In this document: piece by piece, positions 52,645-61,115 of the stretch
Position numbering within the stretch: the first letter of the stretch is position 1
How the letters are laid out: each line of letters opens with the position of its first letter
Assembly: GCF_036231355.1 (NCBI RefSeq)
Contig: NZ_CP109496.1
Coordinates: forward strand, 6,634,001 to 6,698,000
DNA: 64,000 bases
Reading direction: 5' to 3'
Source: Streptomyces sp. NBC_01431
GTDB lineage: Bacteria; Actinomycetota; Actinomycetes; Streptomycetales; Streptomycetaceae
Program-made: the position numbers and the translations under genes
The notes under the pieces: model-generated
The model's database searches: none
Seen by the model: the letters and a program-made list of their open reading frames with translations, nothing else
What the model was told of the DNA's origin: nothing

Positions 52645-54102
52645 GTGAACGATTCGCCACCTCGCAGCCCGAACAACAGCGCGGGCAAGGCCGCAAAGCC
52701 CTACCGCCGTCCCAAGAAGGACCCGGTCCGCATCCTGGCCTTCGAGGCGCTGCGGGCCGTCGACGAGCGGGATGCCTACGCCAACCTGGTCCTGCCGCCG
52801 CTGCTGCGCAAGGCGCGCGACGGCGGGAACTTCGACGCCCGGGACGCGGCGCTCGCCACCGAGCTCGTCTACGGGACGCTGCGCCGCCAGGGCACGTACG
52901 ACGCGATCATCGCGGCCTGCATCGACCGGCCGCTGCGCGAGGTCGACCCGCCGGTGCTCGACGTGCTCGCGCTCGGCGCGCACCAGCTGCTCGGCACGCG
53001 GATCCCGAGCCACGCCGCGGTCTCGGCGAGCGTGGAACTCGCCCGGGTGGTGCTCGGCGACGGGCGGGCCCGGTTCGTCAACGCCGTCCTGCGGAAGATC
53101 GCGGCGGACGACCTCGACGGCTGGCTGGAGAAGGTGGCGCCCTCCTACGAGGAGGACGCCGAGGACCACCTCGCCGTCGTCCACTCGCACCCGCGCTGGG
53201 TCGTCTCCGCGCTCTGGGACTCGCTCGGCGGCGGCCGGGCGGGCATCGAGGACCTCCTGGAGGCGGACAACGAGCGCCCCGAGGTGACTCTGGTCGCCCG
53301 TCCCGGCCGCTCCACCACCGACGAGCTCCTCGACGCCCTGGGTGAGGACGGCGGTCTGCCCGGCCGCTGGTCGCCGTATGCCGTGCGGATGGCCGAGGGC
53401 GGCGAACCAGGAGCGCTGGACGCCGTGCGCGAGGGCCGGGCGGGCGTCCAGGACGAGGGCAGCCAGCTGGTGGCCGTGGCCCTCGCCAACGCGCCCATCG
53501 AGGGCCGCGACGAGCGCTGGCTGGACGGCTGCGCGGGCCCCGGCGGCAAGGCCGCCCTGCTCGCCGCGCTCGCCGCCGGGCGCGGCGCCGCGCTGCTCGC
53601 CTCCGAGAAGCAGCCGCACCGGGCCCGCCTGGTCGAGCGCGCGCTGGCCGGCAACCCGGGCCCGTACCAGGTCATCGCGGCCGACGGCACGCGCCCGCCG
53701 TGGTTGCCCGGATCCTTCGACCGCGTCCTGGTCGACGTCCCCTGCTCGGGCCTCGGCGCGCTCCGCCGTCGCCCGGAGGCCCGCTGGCGGCGTCGCCCCG
53801 AGGACCTGGAGGGCTTCGCCCCGCTCCAGCGGTCGCTGCTGCGCGAGGCGCTGTCGGCGGTGCGGGTCGGCGGGGTCGTCGGGTACGCCACGTGCTCGCC
53901 GCACCTGGCCGAGACGCGCATCGTGGTCGAGGACGTCCTCAAGGGCCGCGGCGGCGCCGAGCCGGTCGAGGCCGACTGGATCGACGTGCGCCCCCTGATG
54001 CCGTCGGTGGCGGGCCTGGGCGACGGCCCTGACGTCCAGCTGTGGCCGCATCTGCACGGCACGGACGCGATGTACCTCGCGCTGCTCCGGCGGACGGCCT
54101 GA
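52645..54102 (+). CDS. rsmB: 16S rRNA (cytosine-C5)-methyltransferase RsmB/Sun
   Basis: This 485-aa protein methylates a cytosine of 16S rRNA (C967 in E. coli). A basic N terminus leads into a NusB-like domain (RILAFEALRAVDERDAYANL). The methyltransferase domain has the SAM site LDGCAGPGGKAALLAAL, catalytic C367 in VDVPCSGLGALRRRPE, and the second Cys C417 in YATCSP. The GTG at 52645 has GGAG upstream. It ends the conserved fmt-rsmB pair; the accessory unit begins 250 bases later. Confidence 0.93.
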   Translation: MNDSPPRSPNNSAGKAAKPYRRPKKDPVRILAFEALRAVDERDAYANLVLPPLLRKARDGGNFDARDAALATELVYGTLRRQGTYDAIIAACIDRPLREVDPPVLDVLALGAHQLLGTRIPSHAAVSASVELARVVLGDGRARFVNAVLRKIAADDLDGWLEKVAPSYEEDAEDHLAVVHSHPRWVVSALWDSLGGGRAGIEDLLEADNERPEVTLVARPGRSTTDELLDALGEDGGLPGRWSPYAVRMAEGGEPGALDAVREGRAGVQDEGSQLVAVALANAPIEGRDERWLDGCAGPGGKAALLAALAAGRGAALLASEKQPHRARLVERALAGNPGPYQVIAADGTRPPWLPGSFDRVLVDVPCSGLGALRRRPEARWRRRPEDLEGFAPLQRSLLREALSAVRVGGVVGYATCSPHLAETRIVVEDVLKGRGGAEPVEADWIDVRPLMPSVAGLGDGPDVQLWPHLHGTDAMYLALLRRTA

Positions 54103-54352
54103 CCCCTGACCCCGGGGCGACAGGACCTGAAGCCGCGGTTGTGCCGCTTCCTTGAAGGGTTCGTGCCTTTCTCGGGGAGACGGGGTATGGCATGGACAGC
54201 TCAGGTGGACAGTGGCCTGCGTGGTAGGGGAGGAGTGCCGGGCCGCGTTCGGGACGGGGCCCGCCCTTGTCGGCGGAGTGAGGCTGTGGTGACGGGTTTT
54301 CATGTCACCGGGCGGTCACTGGCGTGCGTTGTCCAGCGAGGGGCGGGGGCCA
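54103..54352 (+). other. Gap before the accessory unit with a GGTGAC/GTCACC inverted repeat
   Basis: No gene is seen in these 250 bases. GGTGAC (54288-54293) and GTCACC (54304-54309) form a 6-bp inverted repeat with a 10-base spacer, 44 bases before the first gene of the unit, which could be an operator. No convincing promoter hexamers were found. Confidence 0.5.
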
Positions 54353-54772
54353 GTGCTGACGTGGGTCGAGGCCGCGGCGTGCGGCGCGGGCGGTGGGCTG
54401 ATCGTTGAGGCGGTCGTCACTTTCGGGCGGCTGAACGCCTGGCAGCAGGCCAGGCACATGGCGAGAGCGGCGGCGGCCGAGTTGCCTCGCATCGACGCGT
54501 ACGTCGATCCCCTCGCGGATTCGCTCGCCGCGCTCTTCCGGGTGGCACTGGGCGGTACAGCCGCCTGGCTGCTCCATGCCGAGGTCACCGGCGTGTACGC
54601 GGCCGTGACCGTGGGAGCCTCAGCGCCCGCGCTGCTCGCCCAGGTCGGTAGGGCGACCTCCGCCGCCGATGCGCTTCGGGGTGGGCCGGAGCCGGGTGGG
54701 GAGCCGAGTGGCCCCGTGCCCCCGTCCGGGCCTCCAGGACCTCTCCCGACCCGCGAGGAGACGGCTTCATGA
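54353..54772 (+). CDS. Small membrane protein, gene 1 of the accessory unit
   Basis: This 139-aa protein is not recognised. It starts LTWVEAAACGAGGGLIVEAVV, a weak hydrophobic segment, then has a charged helix (GRLNAWQQARHMARAAAAEL), the motif LPRIDAYVDPLADSLAALF, and a strongly hydrophobic region of about 35 residues ending near APALLAQVG that can form one or two membrane helices. A Pro/Gly-rich tail follows. The GTG at 54353 is chosen for the GAGGGG upstream and because it starts the hydrophobic segment. The stop overlaps the next ATG by four bases, so it is the leader gene of a coupled set. Confidence 0.7.
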   Translation: MLTWVEAAACGAGGGLIVEAVVTFGRLNAWQQARHMARAAAAELPRIDAYVDPLADSLAALFRVALGGTAAWLLHAEVTGVYAAVTVGASAPALLAQVGRATSAADALRGGPEPGGEPSGPVPPSGPPGPLPTREETAS

Positions 54773-55512
54773 GTGCTGGTTCGGTCGCCCGGCGCAGCTG
54801 GGGGTCGTTCATCGGAGGGCGGCCGCACGTCCCGCGCGCAGGGGGACGGGCACGTGACGGATACACCGTGCGCCAGCGGTTCTGGGCGTCGTTCACCGGC
54901 CTGGACCTGCCCTGGGCCCGTGTCGGCTCGGTGTCGGCGCCCGAGGCGCCGGTCCGCCCACCCGCGCCGTCGGCCCGGCCCGCCGCCAGCAGCGATGCGA
55001 TCGCAGGGCGACTCGAACCGGGCTGGTTCGCCCTGCCCCCGATCCTGACGGTCGCCGGTCTGACCGCTGCGGGAGGCGACGCGGTGATTCTGGAGACGTC
55101 GTCCCCCGACGGCGGAGCCAGGTTCCTGCTGCGCACGCAGGGTGCCGGCCGGCCCGAGTACTGGCTGGAGCTGGTCCTGCGGGGCGTCGACGCCGCCCGG
55201 CCGCTGGTGTCCCCGGTCCGGTACACAACGGCGGGCGGCGGTGAGAAAGTGCTGCTCGTGCCGGTGGTACGGGGTCGGCTCGGACCTCCCGCCTCATTGG
55301 TCCGCCTCCCCGGTTTCGCCGCCGACTCGTCGTCGGGAGGGTGGACGGCCCGTGCTCCCGCTCCGGTGACGCCGGACACCGACTGGGACGCCGCCACGGT
55401 GGCCGACTCGGTTCGGGCGGCGCTCAACGAGGCGACCCGCGACGCCTGGCGCCAGGTGCGGGAGATCGTCGGCGACGACCTGCGCGCGACCATCGACGGT
55501 GAGCTGTCGTGA
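54769..55512 (+). CDS. Protein of unknown fold, gene 2 of the accessory unit
   Basis: This 247-aa protein is not recognised. Near the N terminus two similar short motifs occur, SWGSFIGGRPHVP and RFWASFTGLDLP, separated by a basic stretch. An Ala/Pro linker leads to a ~110-residue beta-rich part (WLELVLRGVDAARPLVSPV; EKVLLVPVVRGRLG) and a helical C terminus (SVRAALNEATRDAWRQVREIV). There is no membrane helix or signal peptide. GAGGAG precedes the ATG. It overlaps both neighbours by four bases, so it is produced together with the membrane protease-like gene 3 and may be its partner or substrate. Confidence 0.75.
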   Translation: MSAGSVARRSWGSFIGGRPHVPRAGGRARDGYTVRQRFWASFTGLDLPWARVGSVSAPEAPVRPPAPSARPAASSDAIAGRLEPGWFALPPILTVAGLTAAGGDAVILETSSPDGGARFLLRTQGAGRPEYWLELVLRGVDAARPLVSPVRYTTAGGGEKVLLVPVVRGRLGPPASLVRLPGFAADSSSGGWTARAPAPVTPDTDWDAATVADSVRAALNEATRDAWRQVREIVGDDLRATIDGELS

Positions 55513-58500
55513 GGCCGCCGTGGTCGTCCCGGCGCCGGTCCGAGGCCCCGCCGGATTCGTTCCCGTATCGCACGGAACTCGACGGCGTGGTGGAAGACGC
55601 GAGCCCGCAGACCGCCGTGCAAGCCCTGCTCGGTGGACGGCAGCTGTGGTGGCGGTGCTGTAGCGAAGCAGTGCGCACCGATCCGTCCTGGCTGTCCCGA
55701 ACACGCGGCAAGGATCTGCTCGCCTGGCTCAACAGCACGGCGGCGGGCCGCGCGAGCGCGGCCGTAACGGCGGCCGACCACGCGTGGCTGCTGGGCAGAG
55801 CCCTGACGGCAACCGAGGACCACGACGGGGAACACGACGAGGCGCTGGACCGGTTGGCGCGGGCGTGGAAGCAGAGCGGACTGGTCTCGGCGGAGGCGGC
55901 TCCCGGTCCGGCTCAGCTGTCGGGAAAGGGACTTGAGTGCCTTGCGCCGGACGTCGCGGACGCTCTGAACGTCGCCGTCGGGCGGATTCAGGCCCGGTGC
56001 GAGGCTCCCGCCGAGCAGCCGGAAGCGGGCGTCCTGGTGATCGCCGCCCTGCTGATGGCAGGGGCCGAAGCAGGCGGGCGGCCCCGCGTCAGCGTGCCGG
56101 TGGTGTTCGGCCGATCCGCCGGCCCCGCCGGGCAGTCCGCCGTGGAAGAGGGCGACACCGGCGTGCTGGAACTGCGCGAATTCCCCGCCGGTCCGGCCGG
56201 CCTGTATCCCGATCCACGGGCGATGGCGGGGGTGCGGAGCCCGAACGGGCAGTTCGCCGCCTCGCTGGGCCACGCGTGGAACGCGGCCGGCTCCCGGCGC
56301 GAGGGACGCTGTGTCCTGTGGCGCCTGGTCCTGTCGGACGACCCCATGCCTCCGGCGCAGATCGACGGCCCCTCCCTCGGCGCGGCGTTCGCGCTCGGCC
56401 TGCGCGACCTCTTACGGCACCCGCCGTCCCGTCGGCCCAGCATGGCCGGGCTTCGCGGCTTCTTCTACGGGCTGCGCCCGCGGACCGCGGTGACCGGCGC
56501 GCTCGACGGTGGGGAGCGCCTCCTCCAAGTAAGCGACATGAACGCCAAGTTGCTCGCCGCGCGCCGCAGGAGACTGCGGCTCGTGGCGCCCGAGGCGAAC
56601 CGGCTCGACGTCACCAGGGCGCCCGAGCCCGGCGACGTGAAGTTCGCCGCGACCCTGCGCCAGGCCGACCGGTACGCCCGCCGGTTCCGCACCGGCAGGC
56701 TGGCCGTCGCCCTGGCCCTCATCGCCACGGCCGCCACCACCGGATCGGTGGTGACACAGCGGGACCAGGCGGACGCGCAGCGGCTGGCCACCGCGCATCG
56801 GCTCGTCCAGGTGGCACAGAGCCTGCTCCCCAGCGATGTCGGACTCGCCGAACTGTTCGCCGTGCAGGCCTACCGCCGGCACGCCGATTCGCTCACCCGC
56901 ACCGCGCTCCTCCAGGCCGTCACGGCTGGCCCGTACCTGGCGGGCGGCATGCAGGCGAGCGGGCCGGTCTCCGCACTCACAAGCTCGGCGGACGGACATG
57001 TCGTGCTCGCCGGAACCCAGCAGGGCGACGTGGAGCAGTGGACCCTCACCGGGACGCGAGCCGGCCCCCCGAAGCGGCTGGGCCAACTGCCCGGACCCGT
57101 CACCTCGGTCGCGGCCGGCACCGACGGCGCGACGGTCGCCGCGATCGACCACAGCACGGTCCGTCTCTGGGTGGGCGGGCGGCAGACCACGGCTCCGCAG
57201 CTGCCCGCCGAGCAGAGCCCCACGGCCGTGGCGGTCTCCCCCTCGGGACGCTTCACCGTCGTGGCCACCACGAACCGTTCGACGACACAACCGCCCGTCC
57301 TCTCGGTGCTGGACCGGACCACGGGACGCACCACTCACCTCGACCTCCACCTGGCCTCCGCCGCCGGCGCCATCGCCTTCCGCGACGACTCGACCGTGGT
57401 CGCCTTCGAGGACGCCTACGGCTCCTGGCAACGGATCGCCCTTCCGGCCCTGGCCCCAACCGGCGGAAGCACCCTCGGCTTCGGTGTCCACAACCAGGCA
57501 TCCGCACTCGCCCCGGACGGCAGCTACTTCAGCTACACCAACGGCGGGGCGATACTCCCGCTCTGGCCGTCCCAAGGCACGCCCGACATCGACAAACCGG
57601 CCTTGCAGGCGCAGACCCAGACCGGTCATCCGGCCGCGGCCCTGGCCGTCAGCAGCGGCGGCTCCTGGACCGGCGAAGCCGTGGGCAGCAGCATCTACGT
57701 CTCACGGACCGAGGCATCGGGCCAAAAGCTTTCCGCGCCCATCACTCTGGCCGGAGCAGGGGCGGTGACGCGCGGCGCCCTCGCCTTCCTCGGCAGGGAC
57801 GGGGGCAGACTGCTCTCGGCCTCCGGCGCCGTCCTGAGCCTGTGGGACCTCGGGCAGTACGCCGGGATCGCGACGGGCGTGGGAGTCACCGTCCCGCATT
57901 CGTGCAACGGCTGCCGGGGGCCGGGTCTCTCGCTGTCTCCCAACGGCCGCTCCGCGGCGGTCATCGACGGCAACGGGACGACCCTCGATCTCCAGAGCCT
58001 GGACGCGGCCGGAGCCGTACGGAAGTCCTTCGCGGCGGGCGGGCCCCTGATGAAGGACCAGGGCTTCGCGGCGGCGCTGTGGCAGAACGACGACAGGGTC
58101 ATCGTGGTCTCCGCGCAGGACGGCAGTGCCCAGATCCTCACCCCCTCCCAGGGGTTCCGGATCACTGGCAGCTGGCAGCCGCCCCCGGACCCGCTCCAAC
58201 TCGCCGATCCCGCGGCTCTGTTGCGGCTGCTGCCGGACGGTCGGCAGGTGGCCGAGGTGGACACCTCCGGCACCATCCGCTTGCGGGACGTGGCGACGGG
58301 GAAGGTGCTGCGCCGGCTGGACGGCCCCCGTGACATGGCCCCGACGGGGGGCGGCGGCCGGGAGCTCTCGCAGGGAAGGGTGGCCCTGGACTCCACGGGC
58401 GGCCACGCGGCCGTCATCGACACGAGCTCCCTCGGCCTCGCGAGCGACAAGGTGGTTGTCACCGACACCGCCACGGGCCACTCGCGGCTGCTGCCCGGGA

Positions 58501-58976
58501 CCAACGCCGTGGGCGTCGCCTACGCCGGGGACCACCTGCTCGTCCAGCGGCTGAGCGGCGGCATGGAGGAGTGGACCGCCGCGGGGGACCGGCGCCTGGG
58601 CACGCTCGCAGGCGAAGGCCGCACGAGCGTGGGCCCGGCCGTCGGCGAAGACGTCATCGCCGAGAAGCTGGACGACGACACCGTACGGCTCATCGACCTC
58701 GCGTCCGGCCACGCCTTCGGCACCCTCCAGCTCCCGCCCGGCAGCAAAGCCGAGTCCACCGCTCTCGCCTTCTCGGCCGACGGCGGCGAACTGGTCACCG
58801 TGACGGAGTCCGGCGGGGACGTCACCGGCGACGTGGGCACCCTGATCACCTGGAAGCTCGACCCGGACGCCTTGACGCGCGCCGCCTGCGCGTCGGCCGG
58901 GCGGGACCTCACTCCCGATGTCTGGAGTCAGTACATGGGATCCGGCACCCCTTCGAACCTGCACTGCCTGACATGA
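55509..58976 (+). CDS. Membrane protein with Lon-like (S16) protease domain and WD40-type propeller, gene 3 of the accessory unit
   Basis: This 1155-aa protein has three parts. Residues ~190-370 resemble a Lon protease domain: DGPSLGAAFALGL with S289 at the position of the Lon catalytic Ser, then AVTGALDGGERLLQV and NAKLLAARRRRLRL with K347 at the catalytic Lys position. One membrane helix lies at ~398-415, followed by helical heptads (QRLATAHRLVQVAQSLL) as in AAA-WD40 proteins. A propeller with repeats such as GTIRLRDVATGKVL runs from ~484 to the end, closing with two Cys. No Walker A or AAA module is visible. Codon 302 is TTA (56412-56414), so translation should depend on bldA tRNA. The GTG start overlaps gene 2. 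Confidence 0.75.
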   Translation: MRPPWSSRRRSEAPPDSFPYRTELDGVVEDASPQTAVQALLGGRQLWWRCCSEAVRTDPSWLSRTRGKDLLAWLNSTAAGRASAAVTAADHAWLLGRALTATEDHDGEHDEALDRLARAWKQSGLVSAEAAPGPAQLSGKGLECLAPDVADALNVAVGRIQARCEAPAEQPEAGVLVIAALLMAGAEAGGRPRVSVPVVFGRSAGPAGQSAVEEGDTGVLELREFPAGPAGLYPDPRAMAGVRSPNGQFAASLGHAWNAAGSRREGRCVLWRLVLSDDPMPPAQIDGPSLGAAFALGLRDLLRHPPSRRPSMAGLRGFFYGLRPRTAVTGALDGGERLLQVSDMNAKLLAARRRRLRLVAPEANRLDVTRAPEPGDVKFAATLRQADRYARRFRTGRLAVALALIATAATTGSVVTQRDQADAQRLATAHRLVQVAQSLLPSDVGLAELFAVQAYRRHADSLTRTALLQAVTAGPYLAGGMQASGPVSALTSSADGHVVLAGTQQGDVEQWTLTGTRAGPPKRLGQLPGPVTSVAAGTDGATVAAIDHSTVRLWVGGRQTTAPQLPAEQSPTAVAVSPSGRFTVVATTNRSTTQPPVLSVLDRTTGRTTHLDLHLASAAGAIAFRDDSTVVAFEDAYGSWQRIALPALAPTGGSTLGFGVHNQASALAPDGSYFSYTNGGAILPLWPSQGTPDIDKPALQAQTQTGHPAAALAVSSGGSWTGEAVGSSIYVSRTEASGQKLSAPITLAGAGAVTRGALAFLGRDGGRLLSASGAVLSLWDLGQYAGIATGVGVTVPHSCNGCRGPGLSLSPNGRSAAVIDGNGTTLDLQSLDAAGAVRKSFAAGGPLMKDQGFAAALWQNDDRVIVVSAQDGSAQILTPSQGFRITGSWQPPPDPLQLADPAALLRLLPDGRQVAEVDTSGTIRLRDVATGKVLRRLDGPRDMAPTGGGGRELSQGRVALDSTGGHAAVIDTSSLGLASDKVVVTDTATGHSRLLPGTNAVGVAYAGDHLLVQRLSGGMEEWTAAGDRRLGTLAGEGRTSVGPAVGEDVIAEKLDDDTVRLIDLASGHAFGTLQLPPGSKAESTALAFSADGGELVTVTESGGDVTGDVGTLITWKLDPDALTRAACASAGRDLTPDVWSQYMGSGTPSNLHCLT
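56412..56414 (+). promoter_or_regulatory. In-frame TTA leucine codon (bldA target)
   Basis: TTA occurs in frame as codon 302 of gene 3, 13 residues after the putative catalytic Ser. In Streptomyces TTA is read only by the developmentally controlled bldA tRNA. No other in-frame TTA was noticed in the genes of this window. Confidence 0.9.
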
Positions 58977-60148
58977 GAGGGCCCCGCGGCGGACGTGAGC
59001 CCCGCCCTCGGGGACGGGACGGCCACAGCATGCGCGACCGCGGCACGGGAGGTTCCCGCCGCGCGAGGGGCCCGGGGCGGGGCCGTCCCGGGCCCGCACC
59101 GAACCCGCTCAGCCCGCTCCCCACGCGCTCCGCCGTACGCGCCCTTTCCAGCATCGCGCTGACGCTCGCCCTCACGCTCACCGGGTGCACCGACGCCCCC
59201 CGTCGTGCCGCCCCCGAGAACAGCGCCACCGTGACCGCGGCCCCACGCTCGCCCCAGGCCGTCGAGCTGCCCGGCAACTCCTGGCCGGCCGAACTAGCCG
59301 TGGCGCCGGACGGCACCGTATGGACCGCGGAGTCCTCCCTCGGCTTCCTCGCGTCCATCAGTCCCGACGGGACGATCACCCAGCACCGCCTCGCCGACGC
59401 CCTCCACGCCCCCTCCCTCGACCCCACCTACCTCGCGGTCGCCTCCGACGGCTCCGTCTGGTTCACCTGTCCGAACCACGTCGGCCGACTCGCACCGGAC
59501 GGGAAGGTCAGCCTCTTTGACGGACCGGTCATGGGGCCCGGCTCGCCCGACGCCATCACCGCGGGCGCCGACGGCTCCGTCTGGTACGGGAGCGCGTCCG
59601 TCGACGCGTCGCAACTGACCCACCTGACCCCCTCGCTCTCGGCCACCCGCGTTCCTGTGCCACTGGCGCCGTTCGCACCGCACGTCACGTCACTGACGTT
59701 CGGACCGGGCGGACGCCTCTGGTTCGCCGAGTCCCCGATCACCGACCAGCCCAGCGAAATCGGCTACGTGGACACCGGCGGGCACCCCAAGGTCTGGCTG
59801 CTGCCGACCGCCGCCACGCCCGTCGGGTCGCTCGTGCCCGGCCCCGACGGAGCGCTCTGGTTCAGCGAGACCAACGCCATCGGGCGGATCACACCGAGCG
59901 GCGCCATCTCGTCCTACCGGACGGGCGCCATGCGATACGTCCGGTCCGTGATCGCCGGACCCGACCAAGCGCTGTGGTTCACCACCGACACGGCCGTGGG
60001 ACGGATCACCACGGCGGGTGTGATCACCCTCTGGCCTCTTCCCGGCGCCCAGGGCCTCGCAGATCTTGTCTATGACTCTCGCCACCGCGGATTCCTGATC
60101 GCCGACGCCAAGGCCGCGGTGCTGCGCTGGTTCCCGATGCCCGCCTGA
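58973..60148 (+). CDS. Putative lipoprotein with streptogramin-lyase-like beta-propeller, gene 4 of the accessory unit
   Basis: This 391-aa protein has a long Arg-rich start, a hydrophobic segment ending in the lipobox-like LTLTGC, and then six repeats of the Vgb type: [45 protein letters not shown] and DQALWFTTD. These fit a streptogramin lyase-like propeller exported and lipid-anchored outside the cell. Lyase activity is not implied. The ATG at 58973 overlaps the gene 3 stop (ATGA), like the other junctions; the ATG at 59030 gives a more usual signal peptide length and is a serious alternative. Confidence 0.78.
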
Positions 60149-60431
60149 GGTGCGATCACGGTCGGCCACGCGGGCCAGGCCCTCGCCCGCACCGGTTCCG
60201 CGCGTGCGGCCCGGTCAACTCAAGCTGAATGAAAGGGAGTTGGACCCTGCGGCCACATTCCGTCGACCGGTCCGGCTCGTCTCCCGGCCCGTCGCGATCG
60301 CGAACTCCACCGGCCGCCGGCGCGGCCGGCCACGCGCCCGGTGTGCCCGCCCGGCCCCGGCGGCCGGATCCCCGCAGGGTTCGTCCGCCGCCGTGGCAGG
60401 CAAGTCGCCCAGGGCATGGCAGGCTTGTGGC

Positions 60432-61115
60432 ATGGCTCAGATCAACCCCAGCATTCTCTCCGCGGACTTCGCCAGGCTGGCCGACGAGGCCCGAGCCGTC
60501 GAAGGCGCCGACTGGCTGCACGTCGACGTGATGGACAACCACTTCGTGCCGAACCTCACGCTGGGGGTGCCCGTCGTGGAATCCCTCAGCCGGGCGACGG
60601 ACACGCCACTGGACTGTCATCTGATGATCGAGGATCCGGACCGCTGGGCCCCGCAGTACGTGGAGGCGGGTGCCGGATCGGTCACCTTCCACGTGGAGGC
60701 GGCCGCCGCCCCGGTACGGCTGGCCCGGGAGATCCGCGCCAAGGGTGCCCGCGCGTCGATGGCGCTGAAGCCCGCGACGCCGATCGAGCCGTACGAGGAC
60801 CTGCTCCCCGAGCTCGACATGCTGCTGATCATGACAGTGGAGCCGGGCTTCGGCGGCCAGTCCTTCCTGGACATCATGCTGCCGAAGATCCGCCGGACCC
60901 GTGAGCTGATCAGCAAACACGGACTTGAACTCTGGCTCCAGGTCGACGGTGGCGTCTCGGCCTCCACCATCGAGCGGTGCGCCGAGGCGGGCGCCGATGT
61001 GTTCGTCGCCGGTTCGGCCGTCTACGGGGCCCACGACCCGGCCGAAGCGGTGCGGACCCTGCGTTCCATGGCCGAACGGAGCACGGCCGGCGCACCCTGG
61101 GCGTGCGCACACTGA
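60432..61115 (+). CDS. rpe: Ribulose-phosphate 3-epimerase
   Basis: Rpe (227 aa) interconverts ribulose-5-P and xylulose-5-P in the pentose phosphate pathway. The TIM-barrel motifs [54 protein letters not shown] and [10 protein letters not shown] contain the metal-binding His/Asp residues. The ATG at 60432 gives the standard N terminus; no strong ribosome site is visible. A 283-base GC-rich gap without a recognised gene precedes it. Confidence 0.96.

What the first reader, a model, noticed from the sequence alone, without database searches (positions are those of the whole stretch)
54353..60148. Four-gene unit built around a membrane Lon-like protease fused to a WD40 propeller
All junctions are 4-base stop-start overlaps (54769, 55509, 58973), so the genes are made together. 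Gene 3 combines a Lon-type Ser-Lys protease domain (S289 in DGPSLG, K347 in NAKLLAA), one membrane helix and a C-terminal propeller. No P-loop is visible; Lon proteases are normally joined to an AAA+ unfoldase, and Streptomyces WD40 membrane proteins usually carry an NTPase. Gene 4 is a second propeller predicted to be lipid-anchored outside the cell, gene 1 is a small membrane protein and gene 2 is unknown. I infer a transmembrane sensor-protease system in which outside propellers control a cytoplasmic protease. The Lon likeness and overlaps are seen in sequence; the system function is inference.
Basis: partly seen in the sequence, partly recalled or inferred. Interest (0 to 1): 0.88.

Follow-up and report, generated by a model that had tools for sequence, protein, structure and literature searches.

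The report
Membrane Lon-propeller protease operon
A soil-bacterium operon joins a Lon-type protease domain to a membrane helix and a sensor-like propeller, and two of its small genes belong to a larger, apparently undescribed set of two-gene membrane modules whose second gene carries many different effector domains.

Summary
In detail: the four frames, 4-base overlaps, S289, K347 and the missing P-loop are there. One sequence alone barely shows the Lon likeness (Pfam E 0.12), but relatives settle it. A profile comparison with canonical Lon (E 2.7e-12) puts S289 and K347 on Lon's catalytic Ser and Lys, kept in 16 of 16 proteins. Residues 192-393 are predicted to fold as the Lon proteolytic domain (Z 20).

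The conserved unit is genes 1-2-3; gene 4, a Vgb-like lipoprotein propeller, is optional. The main new result: gene 1 is much commoner than gene 3 (40 of 297 family genomes). In 37 of 43 loci examined it is followed, at a 4-base overlap, by a protein with the same tandem motif as gene 2's N-terminus. The rest of that protein varies: NACHT, ParA-like ATPase, M48 protease, solute-binding, Septum_form, or the beta domain seen with the Lon protein.

I read it as a membrane platform plus adaptor coupled to an ATPase-less, signal-gated protease. Proteolysis, orientation, trigger and target are inferred.

The parts
54353..54772 (+). gene 1: 139-aa membrane protein with three weakly hydrophobic segments (7-25, 58-76, 78-96); constant component of a wider two-gene module
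   Evidence: no convincing Pfam family
54769..55512 (+). gene 2: 247-aa adaptor-like protein; ATGA overlap with gene 1
54769..54918 (+). gene 2 residues 1-50: tandem motif (VARRSWGSFIG ... RQRFWASFTGLDLP) shared with variable partners of gene 1 homologues
55021..55509 (+). gene 2 residues 85-247: beta domain plus helical tail; in 297 family genomes found only close to Lon-WD40 genes (10 of 10)
55509..58976 (+). gene 3: 1155-aa protein, helical region - Lon proteolytic domain - TM - WD40-like propeller half; GTGA overlap with gene 2
56082..56687 (+). gene 3 residues 192-393: Lon-type proteolytic domain
56373..56375 (+). S289, aligned with the catalytic Ser of Lon; kept in 16 of 16
56547..56549 (+). 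K347, aligned with the catalytic Lys of Lon; kept in 16 of 16
56700..56756 (+). gene 3 residues 398-416: membrane helix
56757..58973 (+). gene 3 residues 417-1155: linker and WD40-like propeller half, ending in a Cys pair (1127, 1153) kept in 16 of 16
58973..60148 (+). gene 4: predicted lipoprotein (hydrophobic 54-72, ending LTGC) with a Vgb_lyase-like propeller (102-358); optional member, start uncertain

Best explanation
Gene 3 is a membrane-anchored, ATPase-less Lon-type serine protease. Its protease domain most likely lies in the cytoplasm and its WD40 propeller outside the membrane. Gene 1 is a small membrane platform protein. Gene 2 is an adaptor: its tandem N-terminal motif docks on gene 1 or on the membrane beside it, and its beta domain docks on the Lon protein. 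An outside signal, read by the propeller half of gene 3 and in some strains by the lipoprotein propeller of gene 4, would change the assembly so that the Lon domain cleaves a flexible, nearby, membrane-associated substrate without unfolding it. That substrate could be the disordered middle of gene 2, or a client that gene 2 brings. The wider family uses the same platform-plus-tandem-motif pair with other effectors in place of the Lon branch. That modular habit, together with SLATT genes near two members of the divergent Lon-WD40 branch, makes a stress-sensing or anti-invader role the likeliest purpose. Shown by sequence or model: operon, fold, catalytic residues in register, membrane helix, no P-loop, clade, modular partner swapping. 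Inferred: proteolysis, orientation, docking, signal, target, purpose.
For: Lon fold and dyad: 6 of 6 relatives match Lon_C at E 0.5 or better, best 4.5e-7. Their profile hits PDB 1xhk (deposited as putative protease La homologue) at 1e-6. AF2 model pLDDT 80.9. Foldseek's top hits are E. coli Lon, E 1.2e-6, target TM 0.72-0.75 for the first two. VIA Z 20.2, rmsd 2.2, 166 aligned. hhalign E 2.7e-12 with S289 on the GPSAG Ser and K347 on the second Lys of KxK. Both are invariant in 15 of 15 aligned proteins down to 27% identity, among only 18 invariant columns, and are kept in a 16th, L081. Clade support 100/99. Operon: genes 1-2-3 in 12 of 17 Lon-WD40 loci, one of them degenerate. 4-base overlaps at both core junctions in 11 of 11 intact operons. 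Adaptor idea: partners in 26 of 32 non-Lon and 11 of 11 Lon loci of gene 1 carry the tandem motif in frame with a 4-base-overlap start. A model built without any Lon-operon sequence still finds the window's gene 2 at E 6.5e-7, and among 5178 ORFs none outside this set scores below 0.1. Partner domains: NACHT, AAA_31/ParA, M48, SBP_bac_3, Septum_form. Topology: the Lon-side flank of the TM is more positive than the other in 16 of 16 (+5 against +1 in the window), and a C-terminal Cys pair is kept in 16 of 16. Conflict context: SLATT_4 proteins 4-5 kb downstream of two of the four divergent-branch genes.
Against: No activity data exist. Lon-fold domains of ComM and BrxL, which I recall as not proteolytic, are also among the structural matches. 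PADLOC has no hit to any of the four proteins. Gene 2's beta domain matches nothing convincingly (no Foldseek hit below 0.001; best VIA Z 6.0). Five of 17 Lon-WD40 loci show no gene 1, four of them nothing of gene 2 either, so the platform is not essential to the protease. In 4 of 16 proteins a second hydrophobic segment passes the threshold, so 'one membrane helix' is not certain for all. The tandem motif's helices are low-confidence in the model, and 6 of 32 non-Lon gene 1 loci do not show the full pattern. Several partners of gene 1 look envelope- or cell-division-related (Septum_form, SBP_bac_3), which argues as much for envelope physiology as for defence. The SLATT genes are not immediate neighbours, and none was seen in the window's unit.
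Confidence: 0.5

Rival explanations
1. Envelope quality control: gene 3 is a constitutive membrane protease that clears damaged or unassembled membrane proteins, in the manner of YlbL or LonB, with propellers as general docking surfaces rather than sensors.
For: An ATPase-less Lon protease that degrades only unfolded substrates is known (LonC, passages of PMC3391209). YlbL is a membrane Lon protease without AAA+ (passages of PMC6051672).
Against: Very patchy distribution (5 of 392 genus genomes; 11 of 249 family genomes with a strong match), insertion between two core genes that adjoin in 2 of 4 other strains looked at, and a dedicated adaptor pair are unlike housekeeping.
Confidence: 0.2
2. 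The Lon domain is a catalytically silent scaffold or oligomerisation domain, as recalled for ComM, RadA or BrxL, and the protein signals by binding only.
For: ComM and BrxL appear among the structural matches, and this genome has genes that look like RadA and ComM with the fold. The loop GPSLG differs from Lon's GPSAG.
Against: Ser and Lys are kept in 16 of 16 divergent proteins and align with both catalytic residues of active Lon. A silent domain would be expected to lose them.
Confidence: 0.12
3. The protein is inverted: the Lon domain is outside the cytoplasm, like YlbL, and cleaves envelope or extracellular proteins, while the WD40 half is cytoplasmic.
For: YlbL is thought to act outside the cell. 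Hydropathy alone does not fix orientation.
Against: No hydrophobic segment above the threshold precedes the Lon domain in the window protein, the more positive flank is on the Lon side, and the WD40 half ends in a conserved Cys pair.
Confidence: 0.1
4. The four genes are merely co-transcribed and functionally unrelated.
For: Gene 4 is optional, and the divergent Lon-WD40 branch shows no genes 1 and 2.
Against: In 297 family genomes the gene 2 beta domain was seen in ten, each time close to a Lon-WD40 gene. The core operon sits at different places: in G544 rsmB is at 7.70 Mb and the operon at 0.52 Mb, whereas in the window they adjoin.
Confidence: 0.03

Closest known systems
Lon protease (MEROPS S16; LonA/LonB)
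   Same: Fold of the proteolytic domain, Ser-Lys dyad in register.
   Different: No AAA+ module or P-loop, unknown helical N-terminus, TM and WD40 C-terminus; separate clade with 100/99 support.
YlbL (PDZ-Lon membrane protease of Bacillus; two genes of this genome look YlbL-like by eye)
   Same: Membrane-anchored Lon domain without AAA+ (passages of PMC6051672).
   Different: YlbL has a PDZ domain and an N-terminal TM; here no PDZ is found and the Lon domain precedes the TM, with a propeller after it. The two do not group in the tree, though long branches make that placement weak.
LonC (MtaLonC)
   Same: Lon-type protease without ATPase activity (passages of PMC3391209).
   Different: LonC keeps a possible non-functional AAA-like domain; no AAA domain or P-loop was found here. 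LonC-specific insertions were not tested.
EACC1 two-gene membrane conflict system (Kaur et al. 2020, PMC7159879, section 33)
   Same: Principle: a 5' gene for a small constant membrane protein and a 3' gene with a strongly variable domain (STAND NTPases, peptidases, periplasmic-binding domains).
   Different: Gene 1 is not EACC1 (no hit; the EACC1 search of this genome does not ring at gene 1). No caspase found; the partner carries a tandem motif instead.
Virginiamycin B lyase family (Vgb) propellers
   Same: Gene 4 matches PF24684 at 1.4e-42.
   Different: Far below the cut-offs for the resistance enzymes Vgb(A)/Vgb(B) (85 and 77 bits against 600); predicted lipoprotein.

Membership tests
Lon proteolytic domain (S16) | Lon proteolytic-domain fold | tested here: met
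   Z 20.2 to 1rr9, rmsd 2.2, 166 aligned (predicted model)
Lon proteolytic domain (S16) | catalytic Ser and Lys in register | tested here: met
   16 of 16 kept, aligned with the GPSAG Ser and the second Lys of KxK
Lon proteolytic domain (S16) | curated Pfam score for this sequence alone | tested here: not met
   12.3 bits, 15.6, 14.6; cut-off 21.1. The best of six relatives reaches E 4.5e-7
Lon proteolytic domain (S16) | proteolytic activity and oligomer | not testable with these tools
   no experiment or multimer prediction available
LonA/LonB ATP-dependent protease | AAA+ module with P-loop in the same chain | tested here: not met
   no AAA domain in the window protein; no P-loop pattern in 16 of 16
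YlbL (PDZ-Lon) | PDZ domain and TM before the Lon domain | tested here: not met
   no PDZ; the TM follows the Lon domain
LonC | LonC-specific insertions and degenerate AAA-like domain | not tested
   no LonC alignment was built
EACC1 system | gene 1 belongs to PF19953 | tested here: not met
EACC1 system | caspase domain in the 3' gene | tested here: not met
   Searches (genes 2-4; 10 of the 27 tandem-motif partners): no caspase
Catalogued anti-phage systems (PADLOC 2.0.0) | a match to any component model | tested here: not met
   0 of 4 proteins at E 1
SLATT-associated conflict loci | SLATT protein near the Lon-WD40 gene | tested here: inconclusive
   over cut-off in L011 and L064 (divergent branch, 4-5 kb downstream), the two candidates picked by eye; other loci were not scanned whole
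Vgb streptogramin lyase | curated score of the resistance enzyme | tested here: not met
   85 and 77 bits against 600

The most novel reading that the evidence does not exclude
Gene 1 and the tandem-motif N-terminus define a previously undescribed modular membrane system of actinobacteria: a constant small membrane protein recruits, through two short helical motifs, interchangeable effectors (NACHT NTPase, ParA-like ATPase, M48 protease, solute-binding or septum-formation domains, or an adaptor for an ATPase-less Lon-WD40 transmembrane protease). The window's unit would be the first known case of a Lon protease domain wired to outside propellers as a receptor-protease.
Probability: 0.5. Interest if true: 0.85.

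Novelty: new variant of a known kind. Interest (0 to 1): 0.72.

Why it matters
A Lon protease domain freed from its ATPase and joined through the membrane to a propeller would be a new receptor design: a protease switched from outside the cell. The gene 1/tandem-motif pair is potentially more general. It offers a simple sequence test (4-base overlap plus motif) for finding new effector or signalling modules in actinobacteria, much as EACC1 and related constant components did. It also makes one question directly testable: whether ATPase-less Lon domains are used for regulated cleavage rather than bulk degradation.

Tried and rejected
Rejected: conservon-type operon (recalled: histidine-kinase-like, roadblock, DUF742 and GTPase genes), since no such Pfam domains appear. 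Known defence system: no hit. EACC1. Vgb resistance enzyme. YlbL membership: no PDZ and reversed order.

Led nowhere: the gene 2 fold search gave only generic beta-sandwich resemblance (MATH/TRAF-like, Siah; Z 6.0 at most), a level the tool's own note calls unsafe. A search of the own genome with the TM-WD40 half (E 1e-5) and with gene 2 (E 0.01) found no paralogue. A phylum-wide search with the Lon-WD40 profile found nothing above 41 bits outside the own genome. For a class-wide gene 1 search (12 of 296 genomes, 7 of 114 genera) the partners of the other-genus hits were not examined. My own small gene caller missed several genes, for example gene 3 in L063, so gene tables from it are incomplete.

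Not examined: 5 of the 46 gene 1 places. Six of the 32 non-Lon places examined do not show the full pattern (L123, L125, L135, L138, L141, L143); L125 has the motif in another frame. In some searches the motif model was trained on 33 proteins; L125, L129, L131, L133, L135, L138, L141 and L123 were left out of training (and L143 was never in), of which L125, L129, L131 and L133 were then found at E 1.3e-3 to 6e-7.

In print: no paper describing a WD40-Lon fusion or this two-gene module was found in the searches (open-licence PMC papers only). 'Lon' as a whole word does not occur in the main text of PMC7159879, PMC8195603 or PMC5587647, and neither 'WD40' nor 'propeller' occurs in the serine-protease survey PMC2605481. 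I read passages of these papers and of PMC6051672 and PMC3391209, plus section 33 of PMC7159879 in full; the rest I saw only as search listings.
Full report
CHECK OF THE OBSERVATION. The four frames and three 4-base overlaps are as described. Gene 1 starts at GTG 54353, gene 2 at ATG 54769, gene 3 at GTG 55509 and gene 4 at ATG 58973. S289 and K347 are at the stated motifs. Gene 3 has one strong hydrophobic helix (398-416). No P-loop pattern is seen in it or in the other 15 full-length relatives examined. Against the closest relative, L008 (Streptomyces sp. WM6378), dN/dS is 0.17, 0.45, 0.46 and 0.40 for genes 1-4, so all four look like real, constrained genes.

THE LON DOMAIN. From this one sequence the Lon likeness is marginal: Pfam Lon_C E 0.12, below the curated cut-off, and PDB 1xhk E 0.077. 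Relatives settle it. Six of six aligned relatives match Lon_C at E 0.5 or better, best 4.5e-7, and their profile hits 1xhk (putative protease La homologue) at 1e-6 and mitochondrial Lon at 6e-6. An AF2 model of residues 1-482 on 15 sequences (mean pLDDT 80.9) is matched by Foldseek first to the E. coli Lon proteolytic domain (E 1.2e-6, target TM 0.72-0.75 for the first two rows) and by VIA-align at Z 20.2, rmsd 2.2 over 166 residues, model residues 192-394. A profile-profile comparison with nine canonical Lon domains from genomes of the phylum gives E 2.7e-12. It places S289 on the Ser of DGPSAG and K347 on the second Lys of the KxK motif, 15 residues of insertion lying between. The dyad S679/K722 of E. 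coli Lon is cited in PMC2605481 (passage); its spacing of 43 is that of the two aligned columns. Both residues are invariant in 15 of 15 proteins that share as little as 27% identity, among only 18 invariant columns, and are kept in a 16th, L081. In a tree of 28 Lon-fold domains the 15 Lon-WD40 domains form one clade (100/99). They are separate from canonical Lon, from two YlbL-like proteins and from ComM- and RadA-like proteins of the same genome (names by eye). The branches are long, the program warns that long branches may meet, and the placement of the outgroups is unsure.

DISTRIBUTION. The family is rare: 5 of 392 genomes of the genus. In 249 genomes of the family, 241 match at E 1e-5, but beyond 11 genomes with a long, strong match the listed rows score 37 bits or less on the Lys side only (apart from fragments of the broken G461 copy), in frames that are mostly about 800 codons long, as expected of ordinary Lon. 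All 13 such loci that I opened, hold the GPSAG motif. In 396 genomes of the phylum only the own genome has a strong match; the next is 40.6 bits. With the genome-contig scan (its Ru62 contig has the same length as G111's) and G1008, 17 Lon-WD40 loci are in hand.

OPERON. Genes 1-2-3 stand together in 12 of these 17 loci, one of them degenerate (L061, G461). In the 11 intact ones both junctions are 4-base overlaps. Gene 4 follows in the window, L008, L009, L012 and L081, and as a frame-broken copy in L057; L061 ends inside gene 3 and cannot tell. An overlap before gene 4 in the frame of gene 4 is seen only in the window and L008. In the other five loci (L010, L011, L062, L064, L065) tblastn at E 0.01 shows no gene 1, and gene 2 only as a beta-domain-like stretch inside a different, divergently oriented 644-aa protein in L010. 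In the divergent branch two loci have a SLATT_4 protein 4-5 kb downstream (L011 E 3.8e-30, L064 E 4.7e-26); the other loci were not scanned whole for SLATT. L065 has a nucleotidyltransferase-like gene two genes upstream (PolyA_pol E 2.1e-9). PMC7159879 describes SLATT as a predicted pore-forming effector (passages).

THE WIDER MODULE. A gene 2 profile hits 12 of 297 genomes of the family. Ten hold the whole gene, a broken copy (G461) or its beta domain (G032), and all ten have a Lon-WD40 gene close by. The other two (G275, G578) match only the N-terminal ~75 residues, and both have a gene 1 homologue directly upstream. A gene 1 profile hits 40 of 297 genomes at 46 places, many more than genes 2 or 3. 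Nine of the 46 are Lon-WD40 operons. I examined 32 of the 37 others. In 29 of 32 a start codon lies at the 4-base overlap; in 27 a tandem-motif protein follows, and in 26 it is in frame with that start. With the 11 intact Lon operons, three of them from outside, the count is 37 of 43. The motif is roughly x-R-R-x-x-x-S-L/F-x-G, a spacer, then R-R-x-x-A-S-L/F-x-G-x-x-L-P, with many departures. Because that model was trained on 33 of these proteins, I repeated the search with whole groups held out. A model without any Lon-operon sequence finds the window's gene 2 at E 6.5e-7 and the other nine at 1.5e-11 to 1.7e-3. Seven partners held out one at a time score 1.1e-6 or better. The weakest of all held-out members is L121 at 0.28. 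Among 5178 ORFs of 80 or more codons from 49 loci, the best one that is not beside a gene 1 homologue scores 0.18; one antisense ORF at gene 1 in L118 scores 0.11. Behind the motif the partners differ. Of ten scanned (of 27), five have Pfam domains at E 0.01: NACHT 4.9e-10, AAA_31/CbiA 2.3e-8, Peptidase_M48 3.2e-30, SBP_bac_3 9e-25, Septum_form 1.1e-13; five have none. The genes that follow the partners look different from locus to locus by eye, no clustering was run, and in L082 and L140 no following gene could be read. At class level gene 1 occurs in 12 of 296 genomes and 7 of 114 genera. None of 21 gene 1 proteins has a convincing Pfam match; the best E-value is 0.099.

ANATOMY AND MECHANISM. 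Net charge is +5 in the 15 residues before the gene 3 helix and +1 after it, and in 16 of 16 proteins the Lon-side flank is the more positive. A C-terminal Cys pair 24-27 residues apart is kept in 16 of 16. In 4 of 16 a second hydrophobic segment passes the threshold. The charges and cysteines fit Lon inside and propeller outside, but topology is not proven. Gene 2 is predicted as two short, low-confidence N-terminal helices, a low-confidence linker and a mostly confident beta domain with a helical tail (mean pLDDT 71.5); no solved fold matches it convincingly. The simplest reading is that the tandem motif docks on gene 1, or on the membrane beside it, because that pair is what most of these loci share. 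The beta domain then serves the Lon protein, because I never found it away from one. An ATPase-less Lon can cut only unfolded substrates (LonC precedent, passages of PMC3391209), and a membrane Lon without AAA+ can control a small membrane protein (YlbL and YneA, passages of PMC6051672; purified YlbL showed no activity there). I therefore propose regulated cleavage of a nearby flexible membrane-associated target, released by an outside signal. The target, the signal and the purpose are inference.

GENOMIC SETTING. The unit fills a 6330-base gap between rsmB (ends 54102) and rpe (starts 60432). Of four other genomes looked at, these two genes adjoin with about 150 bases between them in G005 and G012. 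In G031 and G013 other genes sit there (an MFS-like transporter with an HxlR-like regulator; an MMPL-like protein with argininosuccinate synthase, by eye). In G544 the operon lies about 7 Mb from rsmB. So it is an accessory insertion, not part of the core.

COMPARISON AND NOVELTY. The nearest organising principle that I found in print is the EACC1 two-gene membrane system (PMC7159879, section 33), but gene 1 is not EACC1 and no caspase was found. The Lon domain is a genuine S16-type domain with both catalytic residues but no AAA+, so gene 3 is not a LonA or LonB. It lacks YlbL's PDZ and has the opposite order. I found no report of a WD40-Lon fusion or of this two-gene module in seven searches of an open-licence library, which does not cover most subscription journals. 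I call it a new variant of a known kind. The bolder reading, a new class of modular membrane system, is not excluded.

Noticed in passing
window 54102-60432; L169-L172: The gap between rsmB and rpe is an insertion spot: about 150 bases in G005 and G012, other genes in G031 and G013, this operon in the window.
   Followed up: partly
L082:3-2576 (-): A NACHT NTPase with several hydrophobic stretches carries the gene 2-type tandem motif and follows a gene 1 homologue at a 4-base overlap.
   Followed up: yes
L125, L129, L131, L133; also L083, L130, L134, L136: Partners of gene 1 share, by eye, an uncharacterised segment (about VPQHLLSEDRxEYE...LDEALR...EQLRTMALNA) followed by hydrophobic stretches, sometimes before the tandem motif and sometimes after it.
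   Followed up: no
L057:3311-3934 (-): The gene 4 homologue is split between two frames: a real break or a sequencing error.
   Followed up: no
L061:6366-9727: Degenerate copy of the operon at a contig end in G461: genes 1 and 2 run together and gene 3 is in pieces.
   Followed up: partly
L065:5096-6229 (+): A PolyA-polymerase-head nucleotidyltransferase-like gene overlaps by 4 bases a 477-aa unknown, which overlaps the divergent Lon-WD40 gene; proteins in L062 and L064 look similar to the 477-aa protein by eye.
   Followed up: no
L173, L174, L175, L176: By eye the same genome carries two YlbL-like Lon proteins, a ComM-type and a RadA-type protein, besides canonical Lon at G000:C1:2791537-2792169.
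   Followed up: partly
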